Origin: Tranquillimonas alkanivorans
Lineage (GTDB): Bacteria > Pseudomonadota > Alphaproteobacteria > Rhodobacterales > Rhodobacteraceae
Direction of reading: 5' to 3'
Assembly: GCF_900115595.1 (NCBI RefSeq)
Contig: NZ_FOXA01000013.1
Span: 1-64,000 of the forward strand
DNA: 64,000 bases
Position numbers and translations under genes: made by a program. This document shows positions 43,304 to 53,995 of the stretch, in pieces. The notes beneath the pieces were generated by a model that had not been told where the DNA came from, searched no databases, and saw nothing but the letters and a program-made list of their open reading frames with translations. Numbering within the stretch: the stretch's first letter is position 1; each line of letters opens with the position of its first letter.

Positions 43304-44755
43304 TTACGCCGCCTGCTTGTCCACCGGCGCGGGCTGCTGATCTTCGGCGGTGCCGAAGGCCATGTCGTGCAGAGCCTTGACCGCCGTATCCAGCGCCTCG
43401 CGTTTCACAAGAAACTGCACGTCCACGCTGCGCGTGTTCTGGTGCGCGGCAATGACCTCGACCTGCGCCTCGTCCAGGGCGTCGAGACCCTTGGACAGCA
43501 GCCGCAGCCCGCCGAGGTCGCGCCCGATCACCGAAGCGATCGACAGCGAGCGCACGGCCAGGTCGGCCTGCGGATAACGCTCGCGCAGATCGCGCTCGAC
43601 CCGCTTGATCGCCTTGAGCGGCGCGTCGACGTAGTGGGTGATCGTATTCGCGTTCGAGGTCTTCGAAACGATGCGGATCTTGTGGCGCGTCAGCGCCTCG
43701 AGGATCGTCGAGTCGTAGCCCTTCACGCCGACCATGTCCTGCTCGAACAGTTCGATGGCATAGACGTTCAGGCCGCAGACGATCTCGGCCGACGACGTCT
43801 CGGCCGCCTGGTCGTCGATCAGTGTGCCCGGGTCCATCGGCTCGAACGCGTTGGTCACACGCAGCGGCACACCTGCCTGGCGTAGCGTCTTCGCCGCCTT
43901 GGGGTGGATCGCCTCCATTCCCATGTTCGACAGCTGATCGGCCACGTCGTAGTTGGTGTGACCCAGCTTGCGCACGTTGTCCGCGCCCACCAGCTTGGGA
44001 TCGGCCGAGGACAGGTGGAACTCCTTGTGTATCACCGCCTCGCGCGCATGGGTGAGCGATGCGATCTGCGAGAAGGTGACCTCGGAATATCCGCGGTCGA
44101 ACTCCTGCATCAGCCCCTCGGAGCACTGGGCGTAGCCGGTAACGATGGGCAGCTCTTCGCTCAGGTCGACATGTTCGAGGCCCGACAGGATGCGCTCCTG
44201 CAACGAGTACTCGCCCTCGTCACGCCAACCGCTCAGATCCACGAACCGCGCGGCGACGTCGTGACGGCGCAGCAGAAGCGAGGTGACGAAGGCAGAGTGC
44301 GCCTCGCCCAGCCCCGACAGCAGCTCGCGGATGATGAGCATGTGCTGCGACAGCTTGAAGTGGCCGTACGAGCAGATGCGCTGCAGGTCGATCAGGCAGT
44401 TGCGCGCGCCTTCGATGCGTTCGCGCACGAAGTCGTCGGCCATGCTCTGGTCGGCGGGGTGGTCGAGGACCGCGTTATGCGCTTCCGTCATCGCCGCGGA
44501 AACGCGGCTGAGCGCGTCGGACCAGCCGTGGTCGTTCTCGGCGCTGGAGAACAGCGCATAGACGCCCGGCTCGCCCGTCTTCTTGTGCTCGAGCAGCTTG
44601 TCGGTGATGCCGCCGAAGGCCGAGACGACGAAGACGCGGTTATAGAGCGCCGCACCCTCGCGGTCCCCGACGAACAGCGTGTCCACCAGCTCGGGGAGGC
44701 GGGACATGGACGTCCCGCCGATCTTTTCAACGGTATGGTTGCCGTGTTGGGTCAT
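43304..44755 (-). CDS. aspartate kinase, ectoine-operon type
   Basis: A 483-aa aspartokinase of the Ask_Ect group that commits aspartate to ectoine synthesis. The N-terminal VEKIGGTSMSRLPEL replaces the usual KFGG; a GYAQCSEGLMQEFDRGYSEVTFSQIAS catalytic loop and paired C-terminal ACT domains (about 330-470) follow. Ask_Ect enzymes are generally less sensitive to feedback, which suits osmolyte production. Last gene of ectA-ectB-ectC-ask, 31 bases after ectC, with a strong terminator. Confidence 0.93.
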   Translation of the reverse strand: MTQHGNHTVEKIGGTSMSRLPELVDTLFVGDREGAALYNRVFVVSAFGGITDKLLEHKKTGEPGVYALFSSAENDHGWSDALSRVSAAMTEAHNAVLDHPADQSMADDFVRERIEGARNCLIDLQRICSYGHFKLSQHMLIIRELLSGLGEAHSAFVTSLLLRRHDVAARFVDLSGWRDEGEYSLQERILSGLEHVDLSEELPIVTGYAQCSEGLMQEFDRGYSEVTFSQIASLTHAREAVIHKEFHLSSADPKLVGADNVRKLGHTNYDVADQLSNMGMEAIHPKAAKTLRQAGVPLRVTNAFEPMDPGTLIDDQAAETSSAEIVCGLNVYAIELFEQDMVGVKGYDSTILEALTRHKIRIVSKTSNANTITHYVDAPLKAIKRVERDLRERYPQADLAVRSLSIASVIGRDLGGLRLLSKGLDALDEAQVEVIAAHQNTRSVDVQFLVKREALDTAVKALHDMAFGTAEDQQPAPVDKQAA

Positions 44756-44786: not shown

Positions 44787-45173
44787 TCAGCCATTCGCGG
44801 GCGCGTAGCTTCCGTCGGCCTGGTGCACTTCGTTGCCGGTGACCGGCGGATTGAAGCAGCAGGCCATGACGAGCTCTTCCTCGGCGCGAAGCGTGTGCTT
44901 GTCGTGCTGGTCGAGGCCGTACATGACGCCCGGCTTGATCTCGTAGGTCTTGCCGGTGGCCAGATCGGTGATCGAGCCACGGCCGGACATGCAGTACACG
45001 CTCTCGAAATGGTGCTTGTAGTGGAACGTGTGCTCCGAACCCGCTTCCAGCGTCGTGATGTGGAACGAGAAGCCCATGTTGTCGTCGGCCAGCAGCATGC
45101 GGACCGAAGTCCAGCGGGCATCCGAAACGGCGCGGTCGGTGTTCTTCAGCTCGTTGAAGTCGCGTACGATCAT
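44787..45173 (-). CDS. ectC: ectoine synthase
   Basis: A 128-aa cupin that cyclises N-gamma-acetyl-diaminobutyrate to ectoine. Conserved opening MIVRDFNEL; the iron-binding cupin stretch [20 protein letters not shown] at about residues 47-66; a later [12 protein letters not shown]. It starts five bases after ectB. There is no ectD in the window, so 5-hydroxyectoine is not predicted from this locus. Confidence 0.97.
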
Positions 45174-45178
45174 GTTTG

Positions 45179-46468
45179 TTACTCCGCGGCGATCTGCATG
45201 GGCGCGCACTTCTGCGCGGCGTTCTCGAGGATGGTCAGGCCCTTCTGGAACTGCTCCATCGGCGTGGTGAGCGGGGCGAGCACCTTGACGACTTCGTCGT
45301 GGGCGCCCGAAGTTTCGATCACGAGGCCGTTGTCGAAGCACTCGGCGCAGATCTGCTCGGCCAGGTCGCCCGAGCCCACGTCGACGCCTTGCATCATGCC
45401 GCGGCCCTTGAGCTTGGCGCCCGGAATCTTGTCGGCGATGCGCTGGAGCGCGGCGTTGAGAACCTTCGCCTTCTCGGCGATCTCGGTCTTGAAGGCATCG
45501 TCGGCCCAGAACTTCTCGAGCGCGACGCGCGCCGTGACGAAAGCGTGGGTGTTGCCCCGGAACGTGCCGTTGTGCTCGGCCGGCTTCCAGATGTCGAGGT
45601 CCGGGCGCACCAGCAGCGCGGCGAACGGCAGGCCGAAGCCCGAGAGCGACTTCGCCAGCGGGATCAGGTCCGGCTCGATGCCCATCTCGTCGAACGAGAA
45701 GAAGGTGCCCGAGCGGCCGATGCCGGCCTGGATGTCGTCCACGATCAGCAGCGCGCCGTGCTTCTTCGCGATGCGGGCGATGCCCTGCACCCACTCGGTC
45801 GAAGCGGCGTTCAGGCCGCCCTCGCCCTGGATGAGCTCGACGAGGAACGCGGCGGGCGCGTCGATGCCGCTCGAAGGGTTGTCGAGCATCGCTTCGATCA
45901 CGGCGAGCGTGTCCACGTCGTCGCCCAGCGACCCCTCGTAGGGCATGCGGGTCATGTCGTTCAGCGAAACGCCGCCCGCACCCGCGCGCTTGCCGGCGTT
46001 GCCGGTCGCGGCCAGCGCGCCCAGCGACATGCCGTGGAAGCCGTTGGTGAACGAGATGACGTTCTTGCGGCCGGTGACCTTGCGCGCCAGCTTCAGCGCC
46101 GCCTCGACCGCGTTGGTGCCGGTCGGGCCGGTCATCATGACCTTGTGCTCCATGCCACGCGGCTTGAGCACGAGGCGCTCGAACGTCTCGAGGAACGCCT
46201 GCTTGGTCTCGGTGTACATGTCGAGGCCGTGTGCGATGCCGTCGTTCGAGATGTGCTCGATCAGCGCGGCCTTCATGTCGGGGTCGTTGTGGCCGTAGTT
46301 CAGCGACGAGCAGCCCGACAGGAAGTCGATGTAGTCGCGACCTTCCTTGTCGGTCAGCGTGCTGCCGCTGGCCTTGGTGAAGACGGTGTCGAACGAGCGG
46401 CAATAGGAGCGTGCTTCGGATTCACGTCGTTCAAAAATGGTCGGTTCGGCTGTGGTGACAGTCGACAT
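45179..46468 (-). CDS. ectB: diaminobutyrate--2-oxoglutarate transaminase
   Basis: A 429-aa class III PLP enzyme that makes 2,4-diaminobutyrate from aspartate semialdehyde. [15 protein letters not shown] near residue 50, [30 protein letters not shown], and the PLP lysine in [10 protein letters not shown] near 270. Second gene of the ect operon, 57 bases after ectA and five before ectC. Confidence 0.97.
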
Positions 46469-46525: not shown

Positions 46526-47056
46526 TCAGGCCGCCGCGCTCATCGGTTCGCTGAAGGCGATCGTCACCATGTGTTCGGTGGCGTGCTGGCCGTCGAAGTG
46601 TTCGTCGCGCTTGAAGTGCGCCTCGCTGTCGATCTCCGCGCCCTCGCGCTCGGCGAAGCGGGTGAACAGCGCCCAGGATGCGTCGTTGTCCTTGGTGATC
46701 GTGGTCTGCAGCTTGCTGACATCCGCGCAGATCTCGCGCGAAAGGATGTCCTTCAGCATGCGACGCGCCAGACCCTGCCCCCGCGCTTTCTCGGACACGG
46801 CGACCTGCCAGACGAACAGCGTCTCCGGGTCCTCGGGCACGATATAGGCCGAGATCCAGCCGACGGTGTCGCCGTCGAGCTCGGCGATCACGCAGGTATC
46901 CGCGAAATGATCGCACTGGATCAGGTTGCAGTACATCGAGTTCTCGTCGAGCGGCTTGCACTCTTTGACGAGCGACCAGACGGCGGAACCGTCTTCACCG
47001 GTCGGCTTGCGCAACGCGATGGGCTTGCGGGGCATGTTTGTGGCGGTTTTCGTCAC
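46526..47056 (-). CDS. ectA: diaminobutyrate acetyltransferase
   Basis: A 176-aa GNAT enzyme that acetylates 2,4-diaminobutyrate. RKPTGEDGSAVWSLVKECKPL near the start, the acetyl-CoA loop VSEKARGQGLARRML, and SKLQTTITKDNDAS. The start is uncertain. GTG at 47056 is preferred because GAGG lies nine bases upstream. ATG 47086 would be nearly leaderless from the predicted promoter, and ATG 47035 has no site. First gene of ectABC-ask; a palindrome overlaps its likely transcription start. Confidence 0.92.
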   Translation of the reverse strand: MTKTATNMPRKPIALRKPTGEDGSAVWSLVKECKPLDENSMYCNLIQCDHFADTCVIAELDGDTVGWISAYIVPEDPETLFVWQVAVSEKARGQGLARRMLKDILSREICADVSKLQTTITKDNDASWALFTRFAEREGAEIDSEAHFKRDEHFDGQHATEHMVTIAFSEPMSAAA

Positions 47057-47078
47057 TTCGATTAGCCTCGTGTTGTCT

Positions 47079-47093
47079 CTTAGCATTGCTAAG
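47079..47093. promoter_or_regulatory. putative operator of the ectoine operon
   Basis: A perfect seven-base inverted repeat around one base: CTTAGCA-T-TGCTAAG. It overlaps the predicted -10 and start of the ectA promoter. A related half site GGCTAAC lies at 47183-47189 before the divergent MarR gene. It fits binding by a MarR/EctR-type dimer, but no binding data exist here. Confidence 0.6.
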
Positions 47094-47118
47094 TATATAC
47101 ATCGCTTCGGCCAATCAA
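47092..47118 (-). promoter_or_regulatory. candidate ectA promoter
   Basis: On the minus strand: TTGATT (47118-47113), a short 15-base spacer, then TATACT (47097-47092), which is 5 of 6 to consensus. The start would fall near 47085, inside the palindrome. The short spacer would suit a regulated promoter. Confidence 0.5.
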
Positions 47119-47243
47119 CCCCCAAGTCGGGGGATAGTTGCCGCTGATGCATGCAGATGGGCGCCGTCCCGCTGTTTTGCAAGGCTAACTAATAATACTA
47201 CATGATGCGAAGCATCCCGAGTGTGGAGAACGAGATACATCTG

Positions 47244-47795
47244 ATGTCAGAATTGCAGACGCTGCCACTCAAGGCTGGCGGCACACCCGAATCGTTACGC
47301 ACACGGCACGCCATGGACCGCACAGACCAAAGCCTCATCGCCATCCGGCGCATCCTCAGATCGACCGAACTCTACGGCCGGAAACTCGCCAAGGCGGCAG
47401 GCCTCACGGCCGTGCAGATCCGCGTGCTGCAGATCGTGGCCGAGACCGGGCAAGCCACACCCAAGGACATCGCCAAGCGCATGGGCGTGTCGCAGGCGAC
47501 GATGAGTTCGCTGATCGACCGGCTGTCGGCCAAGAAGATGGTCGAACGCCATCAGTCGCAGCGCGACCGCCGGCAGACCAACGTCGTGATCACGCAGATC
47601 GGGCGGCAGGCCGTGCTCGAAGCGCCCGACGCACTTCAGCAGAAGTACGTGAAACAATTCGAGTCGCTCGAGGACTGGGAGCAGGCGATGATCGTCGCCT
47701 CGCTCGAACGGGTCGCGGCGATGCTGGACGCCGAGGGTATCGACGCCTCGCCCGTCCTCGACATCGGCGACCTGTCGGGCCGCCCGCACAGCTGA
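47244..47795 (+). CDS. MarR family regulator, probable EctR
   Basis: A 183-aa MarR-type regulator: TAVQIRVLQIVAETGQATPKDIAKRMGVSQATMSSLIDRLSAKKMVERH is the winged helix, followed by the RDRRQTNVVIT wing and C-terminal dimer helices. It is divergent from ectABC-ask, as EctR is in other halotolerant proteobacteria, so it likely represses or tunes ectoine synthesis. The start is uncertain: ATG 47244 (conserved-looking MSELQTLPLK, weak site) versus ATG 47202. Confidence 0.85.
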   Translation: MSELQTLPLKAGGTPESLRTRHAMDRTDQSLIAIRRILRSTELYGRKLAKAAGLTAVQIRVLQIVAETGQATPKDIAKRMGVSQATMSSLIDRLSAKKMVERHQSQRDRRQTNVVITQIGRQAVLEAPDALQQKYVKQFESLEDWEQAMIVASLERVAAMLDAEGIDASPVLDIGDLSGRPHS

Positions 47796-48576: not shown

Positions 48577-50775
48577 TCAGAGCGCGGGAAGGCCGGCCAG
48601 AACCTTGTCCAGCGTGGCCGGATACTCCCGCACGCGCACGCCACAGGCGTTGTAGATCGCGTTGACCACCGCCGCGCCGGCGCCCGAGATGCCGAGCTCG
48701 CCGATACCCTTGGACTGGATCGGGCACGCCGCGTCGTCGCGCTCGTCCAGGAAGGCGACTTCGATCTGGGGCACGTCGAGGTTCACCGGAACATGGTACT
48801 CGGCCAGGTCCCGGTTGACGATGTGGCCGTCGCGCGGGTCGTGAGCGATTTCTTCGGTCAGCGCCGCGCCGATGCCCCAGACCATGCCGCCCTGGCACTG
48901 CGAGCGCGCGGTCTTCTCGTTCAAGATGCGCCCGGCGGCAAAGACGCCCAGCATCCGCCGCACCCTGGTCTCGCCGGTCGTCGCGTTGACGGCGACCTCG
49001 GCAAAGTGCGCGCCATAGCTCGCTTGGCTGAATTCCTTTGCCGTGGTGCCGGGCACCAGGTGCCCCTCCTCGACCATCGGCCCGTCGGTCAGCAGGTCGG
49101 CCAGCGGTGCCCGCAGGTTGCCCCCGGTGGCCGTGCCGTCCTGAAGCCGCAGCTCGTCGGCGGTGCAGCCCAGCTTTGTGGCGAGCATCTGGCGAATGCC
49201 GCGACAGGCGAGGAACGCGGCCGACCCCGACGACGAGGCGCCCCATGACCCGCCCGAGCCCGGCCCCGGCGGCAGGTCGGTGTCGCCCAGCCGCGCCTCG
49301 ACTTTCTCGGACGGCAGGCCCAGCATCTCGGCCACCAGTTGCCGCAGGACAGCGTAGGTGCCCGTGCCGATGTCGGTCATGTCGGTCTCGACCAGCGCCG
49401 TGCCGTCGGGGTGCAGGGTGACCCGCGCCTGCGCCTCGGACAGGACGTTCGCTCGCGCGGCGGTGGCCATGCCCAGCCCGATCAGCCACTCGCCCTCGCG
49501 CCGCTGTCCCGGCTCAGGGCTTCGCTCGCTCCACCCGAAGCGGCGGGCGCCCTCGTCCAGGCAGGCGGCGAGGGAGCGGGCCGAGTACTGAATGCCACTT
49601 TCGGGATGCAGGTCGGGGATGTTGCGCTTGCGCAGTTCGATTGGATCGAGCCCGGCTGCCTCGGCCAGCTCGTCCATGGCACATTCCAGCGCCAGCATGC
49701 CCACCGCCTCACCCGGCGCGCGGACCGAGCCGGCGCAGGTGCGGTTGACGCGCGCAACCTCTTGCTTGAAACGGCGGTTCTCGCCGCCGTACAGGAAGTG
49801 CGTCGCCTGCGCCGTAGGTTCACTGAAGCTTTCGCCCACCAGGTTCGACACGCGGTCCTCTTGCCCCAGCGCCGTCAGCCGCCCCTCTGTATCGGCGGCA
49901 AGCCGGATGCGCTGGCGCGTTTCGCTGCGGCGCATGGTGCCTTCGAACACCTGCTGGCGCGCCATGACGACGCGCACCGGGCGGCCCAGTTCCTGCGCCG
50001 CGATCGAGGCCGCGACAGCCTCGGGCGCGATCCCCAGCTTCGAGCCGAAGCCGCCGCCGACGTAGGGCGACAGGATACGCACGTTCTGTGCGGAGATACC
50101 TAGTGAATCGGCCAGTTCGGCCCGGTTGAACTTCAGCATCTGGTACGAGCCGCGCAGGATCAGCCGATCCCCGTCCCACTCGGCGATCGAGGCATGCGGC
50201 TCCATCGGTGCGCTGCTTTGCACCGGGGTGGTATAGGTAACGTCGACTGCGTGGGGGGCGTCACCCATGGCCGCTGCGATGTCGCCCTGGTCAAGTTGCC
50301 GCCTATCCGGCGTGTCCACCTTCGACGCCGTCTCGGGGTCCACGTCCGCTTCCTCGACGGCATACTCGACCTTCAGCGACCGCGCGGCGTGACGCGCCTG
50401 TTCGAATGTTTCGGCGACGACGACGGCGATGGGCTGCCCGAAATAGGCGACCTCGGCCGCGCCCTGCACAGGCGCCGCCCCTGCCCCGCCTTGCGCCGGG
50501 TTGCGCAGGAAGCGCTCATCGCTGATCACGGCGAGCACGCCGGGCATGGCCTTCACCGACGCCTCGTCGATCCGGACGACGCGACCCTTTGATATCGTGG
50601 CGCGGACGAGGAAGCCGTCAGCCATGTTGTCAAGTTCGTGCTCCGCGGCATAGACGGCGCGGCCGGATACCTTCAGCGGCCCCTCGGGCCGGTCCTGCGG
50701 CGCCCCCAAGACGCCCTGCGCCGTTTCGTCCAGGTGCCGCGGCTGCGGCGCGTCCATCTTAAGATAGGTCGTCAT
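48577..50775 (-). CDS. aldehyde/xanthine oxidoreductase, molybdenum cofactor subunit (YagR/PaoC-like)
   Basis: A 732-aa catalytic subunit of a xanthine-oxidase-family molybdenum hydroxylase. Opening [13 protein letters not shown]; cofactor-binding [10 protein letters not shown] near 260; GAVNAT- and [14 protein letters not shown]-type segments; the catalytic Glu693 in [11 protein letters not shown]. It overlaps the FAD subunit gene by four bases (ATGA). Order Fe-S, FAD, Mo matches paoABC/yagTSR. Aromatic aldehydes are the likely substrates by homology only. Confidence 0.9.
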
Positions 50776-51764
50776 GCCGCTGCCTCCGTCTGCGTCGCCT
50801 CGCGCAGCACCGCCTTCAGGGTGCGTCGTGCGAGCGGAATCTTGAAGTCGTTGCCGCCCTGCCCCTGCGCCTCGCGCAGAAGCGTATCGGCCGCCTTGTC
50901 GAACAGGTCGTCGGACGGCGACTCGCCCGTCAGCGTGGCCTCGACCTCCGGGTCGCGCCACGGCTTGTGGGCGAGCCCGCCAAAAGCCAGCGCCACCCCG
51001 CCGATCCGGTCGCCGTCCATGCGCAGCACGCACGCCACGGAAACCAGCGCGAAGGCATAGGAAGCCCGGTCGCGCACCTTGCGATAGGCCTGGAACGTGT
51101 TCTTCGCCGGGGGCGGCAGGATCACGGCGGTGATCAGGTCGCCGGGCGCGAGCGTCGTCTCATCCTGCGGCGTGTCGCTCGGAAGGCGATGGAGATCGGC
51201 GATCGGGATCCGTCGCCCCGCGCCGTCCGCGCCTTCGACCTCGATCTCGGCGTCGAGCGCGCGCATGGCCACCGCCATGTCCGAGGGATGCGTGGCGATG
51301 CAGTGCTCGCTCGCCCCCAGGATCGCGTGGATGCGGTTGAAGCCGCCGATGGCCCCGCACCCGCTGCCCGGGTCGCGCTTGTTGCAGGGCTGCGCGGGGT
51401 CGTAGAAATAATAGCAGCGCGTCCGCTGAAGCAGGTTGCCGCCCGCCGTCGCCTTGTTGCGCAGCTGCCCGGTCGCCCCGGACAGAAGCGCGCGCGACAG
51501 CACCGGGTAGTCGCGCCGCACGTCCGGGTGCGCGGCGAGGTCGCTGTTGGTGACCAGCGCACCGATCTTGAGCCCGCCTTCAGGCGTTCGCTCGACGTCA
51601 CGCAGGTCGAGCCGGGTGATGTCGACCAGTCGCTCGGGCGTCATAACCTCGAGCTTCATCAGGTCCAGCAGGTTTGTTCCGCCCGCGATATAGCGCGCCC
51701 CGGCGCCCGCCTCTTTCGTCGCGGTCGCGGGCGCGTCGGCGCGGATGTAGTCGAAGGGCCTCAT
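50772..51764 (-). CDS. FAD-binding subunit of molybdenum hydroxylase (YagS/PaoB-like)
   Basis: A 330-aa CO-dehydrogenase-flavoprotein-type subunit with FAD site [11 protein letters not shown] and [12 protein letters not shown]. Four cysteines (117, 127, 136, 155) lie in an insertion like that which binds a [4Fe-4S] cluster in E. coli PaoB ([22 protein letters not shown] at 155). Overlaps both neighbours by four bases, so the three subunits are coupled. Confidence 0.9.
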
Positions 51765-52276
51765 TCCGCGGCCTCCCGCGTCTCGGCCGCCTCGCGGATC
51801 GCCTGCACGATGCCGGTATAGGCGGCACAGCGGCAGAGGTTGCCACTCATGCGCTCGGCGATCTCCTCGTCGCTCAGCTCGATGTCACCCTCGAGCGACG
51901 GCGAGACATAGCTGGGCCAGCCCTCGCGCGCCTCCTCGATCATCGCGGTGGCGGACATGATCTGGCCCGGCGTGCAATAGCCGCACTGGAAACCGTCGTG
52001 CCGGACGAACCCTTCTTGCAGCGGCGCCAGGTGGCCGGGCCGGCCGATGCCTTCTATGGTGGTGATCTCGTCATCCTCGTGCATGGCGGCGAGCGTCAGG
52101 CAGGAATTGATGCGCCGCCCGTTCACCAGGATCGTGCAGGCGCCGCACTGGCCGTGGTCGCAGCCCTTCTTCGAGCCCGTCAGGCCGAGGTGATGACGCA
52201 GCGCGTCCAGCAGGCTCGTGCGTGGATCGAGGTCCAGCACCTGCCTGTCGCCGTTGATGTCGAGAGTGATTTCCAT
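51761..52276 (-). CDS. 2Fe-2S subunit of molybdenum hydroxylase (YagT/PaoA-like)
   Basis: A 171-aa subunit with two [2Fe-2S] sites: Cys39, 44, 47, 59 ([13 protein letters not shown]) and Cys98, 101, 148, 150 (QCGYC, LCRC). First gene of the operon, with AGGAGG seven bases before the ATG. Unlike PaoA of E. coli, no twin-arginine leader is present, so the complex is probably cytosolic. Confidence 0.93.
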
Positions 52277-52421
52277 GACAGCGCCTCCTTGCCTGCACAG
52301 GACGCGCGGAAGGCTACCGTTGTTCCCCGGAAAGTGCCCGTGCCGTCGGGGCGAAAGACATGCGCTTGTGGATGCCCGAATATCGGGCAACGCAACGCTC
52401 AGTCGGACTTAGGGGAGGAAA

Positions 52422-52591: not shown

Positions 52592-53995
52592 TCATTCGGC
52601 GGCGGCGTCAAGGCTGACGATCTGCTTGGGCAGCGTGATCAGGAAGCGGGTGCCGTCGGGCCCCGTGCTCTCGAGCTCGAGCCGCCCACCATGCCCGCGC
52701 ACGAGGTCAGAGGCGATGACCAGCCCAAGCCCCGAGCCGCCCTTGCTCGCCCGGCCCTGGAATGGCTGGAACAGGTGCTCGCGCGCCTTTGGCGGCAGGC
52801 CCGGGCCGGTATCGGCGACGGTGATGCTCCACGCCGCCTCGTCCTCGGTGGCGCGCACCGAGATCTCGCCCGGCTCGCCGCTGGCCGCGATCGCCTGCCG
52901 GGCGTTGCGCACGAGGTTCGCGATTACGCGGTAAAGCTGTTCGGGATCCGCCCGCACGACCATGCCGCCCGGCACGTCCTCGGAGAAGCTGATGTCGTAC
53001 TCGCCCGCAGCCAGCCGTTCGCCGTCGATCACGTCGTGCACGATTCCGGCAATCTGGACGCGCGACAGGGTCGGCGGCGGTTCCTCGGCTTTGCCGAACG
53101 TCAGCGTGGATTCGCACAGGCTGACGGCGCGGCTGATCGAGTTCAGCAGCTTCGGCGTCATCCGCTTCACCGCCGGGTCCTCGCTGCCCTCCAGACGGTC
53201 GGCGAACAGCTGGGCCGAGGTCAGGATATTGCGCAGGTCATGGCTGACCTTCGCCACCGCCCCGCCGAGTTGGGCCAGCCGGTCCTTCTGTCGCAGCGCC
53301 GCCGTCAGCTGGGTCTGCAGCGATTGCAGCGTCACCTCGGCCTCGCGCAACTCCAGCACTCCGGCCGAAGGCTGGATGATGCGGCGCGCGTCCTCGGGGG
53401 CGGCGGCGTAGCTCGACATCGCGTCGATCACCCCCTTGATCGGCTTCACGAGGAAGCGCCGCACGGCGAGGAACAGCAGAAGCGCCGTCAGCACCGAGAT
53501 GACCGCCGACAGGATCAGGATGCGGATGCCGTAGTCGATCATCGCCGCGCGCAGCGGGGCGGTGGGCATGGTGATCTCGATCAGCAGCCCGCCCTCGCGC
53601 ACCGGGTCGCCGATCACCCGGATCACGCGGTTCTCGGTCTTGAACAGGTCGAGCATCGCATCGCGGATCAGTTGCAGCGGCCCGATGGCGCGCAGGTCGT
53701 AGGTCGCGTCGATGGGCGACGGGATGGGCGAGGACAAAACGAGCTGGCGCACCTGGTCGCGCAGAAGCACGACGTTGAAAACCTCGGCGTTCTCCAGCAG
53801 CTCGCTTTCCAAATTCTCGTCGATCATGTCGCTTGCCAGAAGCGACAGCGACGCGATCTGGGCACGCTCCAGCCGGGACAGCAGGTAATCTTCGCGGAAG
53901 CGCGCGACCGAGGGGACGAAGATCAACACCTCGGCCAGCATGACGAACACCGTCGTCAGGATCAGAAAGCGTCCGGAGAGTGTATTCAGAAACAT
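52592..53995 (-). CDS. sensor histidine kinase
   Basis: A 467-aa kinase. An N-terminal membrane helix (about 9-30), a periplasmic sensor region of about 120 residues without a known domain, a second helix (about 157-180), a HAMP-like linker, the H-box VSHDLRNILTS (His near 252), N-box NLVRNARQAI, G1 DTGPGLPP and a late GSGLGL. No response regulator is adjacent; it is the last gene after the TVP38 and flavin reductase genes, 19 bases from the latter. An orphan kinase of unknown stimulus. Confidence 0.9.
   Translation of the reverse strand: MFLNTLSGRFLILTTVFVMLAEVLIFVPSVARFREDYLLSRLERAQIASLSLLASDMIDENLESELLENAEVFNVVLLRDQVRQLVLSSPIPSPIDATYDLRAIGPLQLIRDAMLDLFKTENRVIRVIGDPVREGGLLIEITMPTAPLRAAMIDYGIRILILSAVISVLTALLLFLAVRRFLVKPIKGVIDAMSSYAAAPEDARRIIQPSAGVLELREAEVTLQSLQTQLTAALRQKDRLAQLGGAVAKVSHDLRNILTSAQLFADRLEGSEDPAVKRMTPKLLNSISRAVSLCESTLTFGKAEEPPPTLSRVQIAGIVHDVIDGERLAAGEYDISFSEDVPGGMVVRADPEQLYRVIANLVRNARQAIAASGEPGEISVRATEDEAAWSITVADTGPGLPPKAREHLFQPFQGRASKGGSGLGLVIASDLVRGHGGRLELESTGPDGTRFLITLPKQIVSLDAAAE

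What the first reader, a model, noticed from the sequence alone, without database searches (positions are those of the whole stretch)
47079..47189. Likely operator and auto-regulated switch for ectoine synthesis
CTTAGCATTGCTAAG overlaps the predicted start of the ectA promoter, and a related GGCTAAC half site precedes the divergent MarR gene. The layout fits direct repression of ectABC-ask and feedback on the regulator by one dimer-binding protein. The word differs from EctR sites I recall from methylotrophs, so the recognition may be lineage-specific.
Basis: partly seen in the sequence, partly recalled or inferred. Interest (0 to 1): 0.6.

Follow-up and report, generated by a model that had tools for sequence, protein, structure and literature searches.

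The report
Ectoine repressor's operator pair, respaced
The palindrome in front of the genes that make the salt-protectant ectoine is very probably the docking site of the neighbouring EctR-type repressor; related bacteria conserve it, but with its two halves one base further apart than in the Vibrio-type relatives.

Summary
The palindrome is real (47079-47093, perfect 7-1-7) but alone is weak evidence: 307 of 5000 shuffles of the gap hold a perfect 7-bp inverted repeat. Its conservation is strong. A blind symmetric-motif search over 56 ectR/ectA gaps returns cTTaG-N5-CtAAg. Strict TTNG-N5-CNAA occurs in 55 of 61 gaps (shuffles: mean 7.2, maximum 13), 3 of 168 control segments and 0 of 6 class-sample ectA promoters without ectR. 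In 48 of 61 it lies 25-75 bp before ectA, usually on the -10 box; here -35 TTGATT, 17 bp, -10 TACTTA. Best reading: an EctR/CosR-type MarR dimer represses ectABC-ask at O1 and probably its own gene at O2. EctR is known, also in this family; the operator described here I did not find in print. Its half-sites match CosR-type ones but stand 5, not 4, bp apart; 17 ectA promoters outside the class gave N4 in 9, N5 in 1. One orphan EctR keeps an N5 site before an osmolyte-importer gene. Binding untested.

The parts
47079..47093 (.). Operator O1, CTTAGCATTGCTAAG; core TTAG-N5-CTAA at 47080-47092
   Evidence: Sequence; motif found blind in 56 gaps; strict core in 55 of 61 gaps, in 48 of 61 at 25-75 bp before ectA
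47090..47095 (-). Predicted -10 box TACTTA of the ectA promoter, overlapping O1
   Evidence: Sequence; TA[C/T/G]TTA at this place in 35 of the 48 aligned O1 promoters
47113..47118 (-). Predicted -35 box TTGATT, 17 bp from the -10 box
   Evidence: Sequence; a -35-like hexamer (at least 4 of 6 to TTGACA at 16-18 bp, best of the three) in 44 of 48 aligned promoters
47176..47188 (.).
   Evidence: a strict site 120-240 bp from the ectA start in 30 of 61 gaps
47202..47795 (+). ectR-like MarR-family regulator gene (open frame). Start uncertain: ATG at 47202, 47244 or 47313; most relatives align only from about 47313
   Evidence: Pfam MarR; alignment start in relatives; AlphaFold model with MarR order of helices and strands
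46526..47035 (-). ectA, diaminobutyrate acetyltransferase
   Evidence: TIGR02406, above its cut-off
45179..46468 (-). ectB, diaminobutyrate--2-oxoglutarate transaminase
   Evidence: TIGR02407, above its cut-off
44787..45173 (-). ectC, ectoine synthase (start read by me from the translation)
   Evidence: PF06339 and NF009806, above cut-off
43304..44755 (-). ask, ectoine-type aspartokinase (start inferred)
   Evidence: NF006614, above its cut-off

Best explanation
The gene at 47202/47313-47795 encodes an EctR/CosR-type MarR repressor. Its dimer binds O1 (47080-47092). O1 overlaps the -10 box and the expected start point of the ectABC-ask promoter, so binding should keep RNA polymerase off and ectoine synthesis low at low salinity. 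A second full site, O2 (47176-47188), lies on the ectR side of the gap and most likely lets the dimer dampen its own gene, or helps at O1. Shown here: the sites, their conservation, their association with the presence of ectR, their place over the -10 box, and the 5-bp spacing typical of this clade. Inferred: binding, repression, autoregulation, and release by a rise in salt or ionic strength.
For: Blind symmetric-motif search over 56 gaps gives cTTaG-N5-CtAAg, log-likelihood ratio 242.6 at width 15 against 43-50 in six shuffled sets, which had 25 starts each against 40. Strict site in 55 of 61 gaps; 20 shuffles mean 7.2, max 13. Control segments of the same loci (ectA side, inside marR, just after marR): 3 of 168. 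All 49 ectA-bearing genomes of 198 in the family sample also carry this MarR at E <= 1e-15. In the class sample, 0 of 6 ectA promoters without EctR have a site against 9 of 14 with EctR. The site follows the regulator: in L063 (no ectA match in that genome) the EctR-like gene is divergent from an OpuAC-type binding-protein gene with TTAGTAGTGCTAA between them; in L023, where ectR and ectA share a strand, two sites lie upstream of ectR. -10 overlap. Published EctR of Methylomicrobium alcaliphilum covers a -10 region, represses ect genes and controls its own gene (PMC5924519, passages).
Against: No binding or expression data for this protein. 6 of 61 gaps have no strict site (L016, L043, L054, L056, L059, L067). 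Two strong EctR homologues without ectA, L012 and L047, have no strict site in the 420 bp upstream. 5 of 14 ectR-bearing ectA promoters of the class sample have none either. A strict O2 is present in only 30 of 61, and no convincing sigma-70 promoter for ectR could be placed near it. In M. alcaliphilum salt induction persists without ectR (PMC5924519, PMC8759281, passages), so the repressor may tune rather than switch.
Confidence: 0.85

Rival explanations
1. O1 is bound by a different MarR/SlyA-type regulator encoded elsewhere; the neighbouring MarR controls something else.
For: The half-site TTAG/CTAA is close to the SlyA site TTAGCAAGCTAA (quoted in PMC8070244). The genome holds at least four other, distant MarR homologues.
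Against: Site and adjacent gene go together: 0 of 6 class-sample ectA promoters without EctR have it, and an orphan EctR with no ectA keeps it. Spacing is 5, not 4 as in SlyA. Of three places in this genome within 1 mismatch of TTAGCNNTGCTAA, two are in the ect gap.
Confidence: 0.07
2. The palindrome is only the conserved promoter (-10 TACTTA and its neighbourhood), not an operator.
For: The right arm CTAAGTA overlaps the -10 box in most aligned relatives, which by itself would conserve that arm.
Against: The left arm TTNG lies outside the -10 box, yet the strict two-armed site is in 55 of 61 gaps at this one spacing among eleven tried, apart from the overlap spacings 0, 9, 10; sites with the same spacing recur at O2 away from that box and at the L063 importer gene; the 6 ectR-less ectA promoters lack it.
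Confidence: 0.05
3. O1 and O2 work together: two dimers close a DNA loop over the divergent promoters, and O2 is mainly an auxiliary operator for ectA rather than an autoregulatory site.
For: Of 26 O1-O2 distances 18 lie at 109-111, 115-121 or 129-134 bp; Rayleigh R 0.38 at 10.5 bp (p about 0.02), 0.42 at 11 bp (p about 0.01), uncorrected.
Against: At 10.0 bp R is 0.30, p about 0.09. Genomes are related and three periods were tried. A strict O2 is missing in half of the gaps. MarR-family loops are not something I can cite.
Confidence: 0.2
4. Chance palindrome without function.
For: 307 of 5000 shuffles of the gap hold some perfect 7-bp inverted repeat.
Against: Conservation figures.
Confidence: 0.01

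Closest known systems
EctR1 of Methylomicrobium alcaliphilum 20Z (and EctR of Methylophaga)
   Same: MarR-family gene beside ectABC-ask; binds over a -10 box; represses ect genes; autoregulated in M. alcaliphilum, not in Methylophaga thalassica (PMC5924519 and PMC8759281, passages).
   Different: Operator described as an A/T-rich pseudo-palindrome of two 8-bp halves 2 bp apart. The original footprint paper was not held, so its letters could not be compared; the letters I recall would have a 4-bp TTAG/CTA spacing, the sites here have 5.
CosR of Vibrio cholerae and V. parahaemolyticus
   Same: Represses ectABC-asp in low salinity; V. cholerae CosR is 51% identical to EctR1 (PMC7876524, passages); same half-site family.
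   Different: Published V. parahaemolyticus consensus TTTGA-NN-TCTAA (quoted in PMC8070244), i.e. 4 bp between TTTG and CTAA; controls several osmolyte operons. Here spacing is 5 and I found only the ect locus as a strong target.
PA3458 of Pseudomonas aeruginosa
   Same: MarR-type osmoadaptation regulator divergent from an osmolyte-synthesis operon; half-sites TTHG.../...AA.
   Different: More than 300 ChIP sites; the printed motif fits 4-bp spacing in my reading; another osmolyte is made (PMC8070244, passages).
EnuR (MocR/GabR type)
   Same: Regulates ectoine genes in Ruegeria pomeroyi, a Rhodobacteraceae member.
   Different: Different protein family, and it controls ectoine uptake and breakdown, not synthesis (PMC5924519, passages).

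Membership tests
EctR/CosR group of MarR regulators | MarR-type winged-helix domain | tested here: met
   PF12802 1.8e-15 and PF01047 5.1e-15; predicted model has MarR order of helices and beta-wing, winged-helix pLDDT about 78-89, whole model only 66
EctR/CosR group of MarR regulators | Gene next to ectABC(-ask) | tested here: met
   Window; 56 of 64 loci divergent from ectA
EctR/CosR group of MarR regulators | Groups with characterised EctR/CosR proteins in a tree | tested here: inconclusive
   Quick tree of 156 proteins places it among ect-linked same-family and same-class homologues; 59 of 153 inner branches have support under 80, and no named EctR1 or CosR sequence was in the set
EctR/CosR group of MarR regulators | Palindromic operator with TTNG/CNAA halves at the ect promoter, over the -10 box | tested here: met
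EctR/CosR group of MarR regulators | 4-bp spacing between the halves, as in CosR | tested here: not met
   N5 in 55 of 61 and N4 in 10 of 61 gaps, N4 being at shuffle level (mean 7.2, max 16). This is a difference of the operator, not a criterion of the protein family
EctR/CosR group of MarR regulators | Binds the operator and represses ect genes | not testable with these tools
   Needs gel shift, footprint, deletion
EctR/CosR group of MarR regulators | Autoregulation | tested here: inconclusive
   O2 present; ectR promoter not identified
SlyA | Site TTAGCAAGCTAA with 4-bp spacing | tested here: not met
   Spacing is 5; NCBIfam SlyA model (PRK03573) scores 25.7 against a cut-off of 120

The most novel reading that the evidence does not exclude
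Within one repressor family the DNA word stayed the same while the distance between its two halves changed by a single base pair: the ect-linked alphaproteobacterial EctR clade is set for TTNG-N5-CNAA, CosR-type and PA3458-type relatives for TTNG-N4-CNAA. The reading helix is shared (SQAT is the consensus in both groups), so the change would lie in how the dimer holds its two heads, and it would insulate the two kinds of repressor from each other's operators. In the same clade the regulator with its N5 operator has been re-used to control an osmolyte importer where ectoine synthesis is absent.
Probability: 0.6. Interest if true: 0.55.

Novelty: new variant of a known kind. Interest (0 to 1): 0.42.

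Why it matters
It gives a concrete operator for ectoine control across many genera of this alphaproteobacterial family, where ectR has been listed in genome surveys but its site, in the papers I could search, has not been described. It also offers a natural comparison of how a MarR dimer changes the spacing of its target by one base pair, and a handle for derepressing ectoine production.

Tried and rejected
Bare-palindrome statistics: too weak to rest on. Generic promoter scan: found no promoter; replaced by aligned promoters. Wider regulon: pattern CTTHGN5CDAAG has 16 places in the own genome against 36 for the reversed control. 15 of the 16 were checked, one of them being O1 itself; 13 of the other 14 fall in a mechanical open frame of 150 aa or more, but so does O1, so this says little. 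The two looked at more closely, L194 and L195, show no frame that I recognise as an osmolyte gene (no family search was run). So no evidence for targets beyond the ect gap, and no proof of absence. Recognition by residue: columns differing between N5 and N4 proteins were listed (residue 58 before the reading helix, residues in helices 1 and 5-6), but the two sets are different clades, so the list does not identify the cause; only a lead. Even-centred and overlapping variants: widths 16 and 18 pick up overlapping half-sites (TTTGCTTAGCTAAGCAAA in L010 and others); spacings 0, 9 and 10 are raised, I think for that reason; no separate mechanism is claimed. Helical phasing of O1-O2: suggestive only. 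Fold search not run: the model is weak outside the winged helix. No EctR named among the PDB matches listed (60 of 62); the best is a generic MarR protein, E 4e-20. Literature: searches showed no paper stating an alphaproteobacterial EctR operator. I saw capped listings of those and passages of five papers; searches drew mostly unrelated papers, none; the library is open-access only. The half-site matrix was set by hand after and applied equally to all spacings.

Full report
OBSERVATION. CTTAGCATTGCTAAG lies at 47079-47093, between ectA (minus strand, start codon 47035) and a plus-strand MarR-family gene. It is a perfect 7-1-7 inverted repeat. Taken alone that is weak: the window has 10 such repeats, and 307 of 5000 shuffles of 47036-47312 hold a perfect 7-bp inverted repeat with a loop of 0-3. 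The question is therefore whether it is conserved.

RELATIVES. The MarR protein was found in 55 of 198 genomes of the family sample, and nine named loci came from the genome collection: five Roseovarius, one unclassified Rhodobacteraceae, two Martelella, one labelled Marinicella. Of these 64 loci, 56 have the gene divergent from ectA. The 8 set aside are L012, L013, L023, L047, L063, L069, L070 and L071. Five more same-family loci from the phylum sample (L103-L107) bring the gap set to 61. L044 and L046 have the same regulator over its first 120 residues and are both counted. That the family is the Rhodobacteraceae is inferred from the named loci; the tool does not name it.

THE MOTIF. A symmetric-motif search that was not told the word gave cTTaG-N5-CtAAg over 56 gaps, log-likelihood ratio 242.6 at width 15, against 43-50 in six dinucleotide-shuffled sets (25 starts each, the real set 40); even-centred width 14 gave 116 against 41-46. 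A strict scan for TTNG-Nk-CNAA over k = 0-10 in 61 gaps gave k = 5 in 55 gaps with 88 sites (20 shuffles, mean 7.2, max 13) and k = 4 in 10 gaps (mean 7.2, max 16). Spacings 0, 9 and 10 are also raised (17, 26 and 25 gaps), apparently because half-sites overlap or repeat at 4-5 bp steps. Control segments of like length from 56 of these loci (on the ectA side, inside marR, just after marR) hold a k = 5 site in 3 of 168 cases. The six gaps without a strict site are L016, L043, L054, L056, L059 and L067. The window's perfect palindrome is thus one instance of a wider operator with a free centre.

POSITION. A first strict site lies 25-75 bp before the ectA start in 48 of 61 gaps. Aligned on it, a promoter on the ectA strand appears: a -10 box TA[C/T/G]TTA overlapping the operator in 35 of 48, and a -35-like hexamer in 44 of 48 (at least 4 of 6 to TTGACA at 16, 17 or 18 bp, best of three; 31 of 48 at 17 bp). 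In the window: -35 TTGATT, 17 bp, -10 TACTTA, with O1 running from the -10 box over the expected start point. A second strict site lies 120-240 bp from the ectA start in 30 of 61 gaps. In the 4.54-Mb genome only three places match TTAGCNNTGCTAA with at most one mismatch: O1 (from which the pattern was made), O2 and one other. No ectR promoter could be placed with confidence. The regulator's start is also open: most relatives align only from about the ATG at 47313, while the one other genome of the genus found to have the gene (L200; 2 of 3 genus genomes, the window's own included, have it) shows an in-frame N-terminal extension (my reading of the sequence printed).

DOES THE SITE BELONG TO THE REGULATOR? 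Three results say so. (a) In the family sample all 49 genomes with an ectA match also have a match to this MarR. (b) In the class sample, 20 genomes besides the window's have ectA; of the 14 with an EctR match (E <= 1e-20) 9 have a strict N5 site within 300 bp before ectA and 5 do not; of the 6 without EctR none has an N5 or N4 site (one-sided Fisher about 0.012, my arithmetic). (c) Six family genomes have the MarR match but no ectA; three of these matches are weak (E about 1e-17 to 1e-18). Of the three strong ones, L063 is divergent from a gene for an OpuAC-type glycine-betaine-class binding protein (PF04069, 3.6e-56) with TTAGTAGTGCTAA between them, while L012 and L047 have no strict site in 420 bp. 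L023, with ectR and ectA on one strand, has two N5 sites upstream of ectR, and L013, at a contig end, has one. In L200 the O1 position carries TTCGTAAGGCTAA twice while much of the flanks has diverged.

SPACING BETWEEN GROUPS. In 67 homologues from the class and phylum samples without a divergent ectA nearby, the 350 bp before the regulator favour N4 (22 of 67; shuffles mean 7.3, max 12) over N5 (11 of 67, within the shuffles' max 12). Six of those 22 are from the window's own class (L093, L096, L097, L155, L157, L159), so N4 is a mark of the regulators not linked to ect rather than of another class as such. The blind search gives TTTGA-NN-TCAAA there (no shuffled null was run for it), in line with the published V. 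parahaemolyticus CosR consensus TTTGA-NN-TCTAA (quoted in PMC8070244, passages). ectA was found in 17 of 39 genomes of other classes chosen for having such a regulator; before those ectA genes N4 occurs in 9 of 17, N5 in 1 of 17 and neither in 7 (mono-shuffles mean 1.8 and 1.7). The nine come from three families, six of them from one genus. I take this set as gammaproteobacterial by inference: the tool says only 'same phylum'. With one half-site matrix for all spacings, 5 is the best spacing in 45 of 51 same-family divergent gaps. By a score threshold on 156 proteins: same-family divergent 43 N5, 0 N4, 8 unclear; same-class divergent 8 N5, 2 N4 (L126, L129), 8 unclear; same-phylum without ectA nearby 15 N4, 2 N5, 25 unclear; same-class without ectA nearby 3 N5, 2 N4, 16 unclear; same-family without ectA nearby 2 N5, 2 N4, 3 unclear. 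On the quick tree N5 is clearly clustered (21 changes, shuffled mean 51.2, as low in 0 of 500) but N4 only weakly (19 changes, shuffled mean 22.7, as low in 4 of 500). So the N5 rule is firm for this family's ect loci and close kin, weaker for the rest of the class (10 of 21 other ectA-divergent gaps, N4 in 5 of 21), and the N4 side rests partly on the published consensus.

MECHANISM. Shown: sites, conservation, association with ectR, place over the -10 box. Inferred from the known EctR and CosR systems (PMC5924519, PMC7876524, PMC8759281, passages): a dimer at O1 blocks RNA polymerase and keeps ectABC-ask low at low salinity; at O2 it probably limits its own gene. The signal is unknown for EctR in general (PMC5924519). 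In M. alcaliphilum salt induction persists without ectR, so tuning rather than a pure switch is likely.

KNOWN AND NEW. EctR repressors are known, and ectR beside ectABC-ask in Rhodobacteraceae is listed in a genome survey (PMC7824335, passages). In nine searches of the open-access library, of which I saw listings and passages of five papers, I found no statement of the operator in this lineage. The new part is the N5 operator with half-sites shared with N4 relatives, the two-site layout, and the re-use at an importer gene. That other MarR-family proteins outside this group also use 5-bp spacing (MexR) is my recollection, not checked. Rating: a new variant of a known kind.

Noticed in passing
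L063 1-2013: A family genome without an ectA match carries an EctR-like regulator divergent from an OpuAC-type osmolyte-binding protein gene, with a strict N5 site between them: the regulator seems to have been re-used for import.
   Followed up: partly
L200 (same genus): The O1 position holds the 13-bp site TTCGTAAGGCTAA twice, 23 bp from start to start.
   Followed up: no
47202-47312: The full MarR frame has up to 37 N-terminal residues not shared with most relatives; the true start may be 47244 or 47313, which would leave a longer leader after O2.
   Followed up: partly
48577-52390: Three-subunit molybdenum hydroxylase cluster (MoCoBD, CO_deh_flav_C, Fer2_2 domains), xanthine/aldehyde/CO dehydrogenase type, with a histidine-kinase gene at 52592-53995 beside it.
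   Followed up: no
L045: Record titled Marinicella sp. W31 (a gammaproteobacterial name) has an ect locus and N5 operator and stands next to alphaproteobacterial Martelella in the tree listing: mislabelled record or horizontal transfer.
   Followed up: no
L012, L047: Strong EctR homologues in genomes without a detectable ectA and without a strict site upstream; possibly relics after loss of ectoine synthesis.
   Followed up: partly
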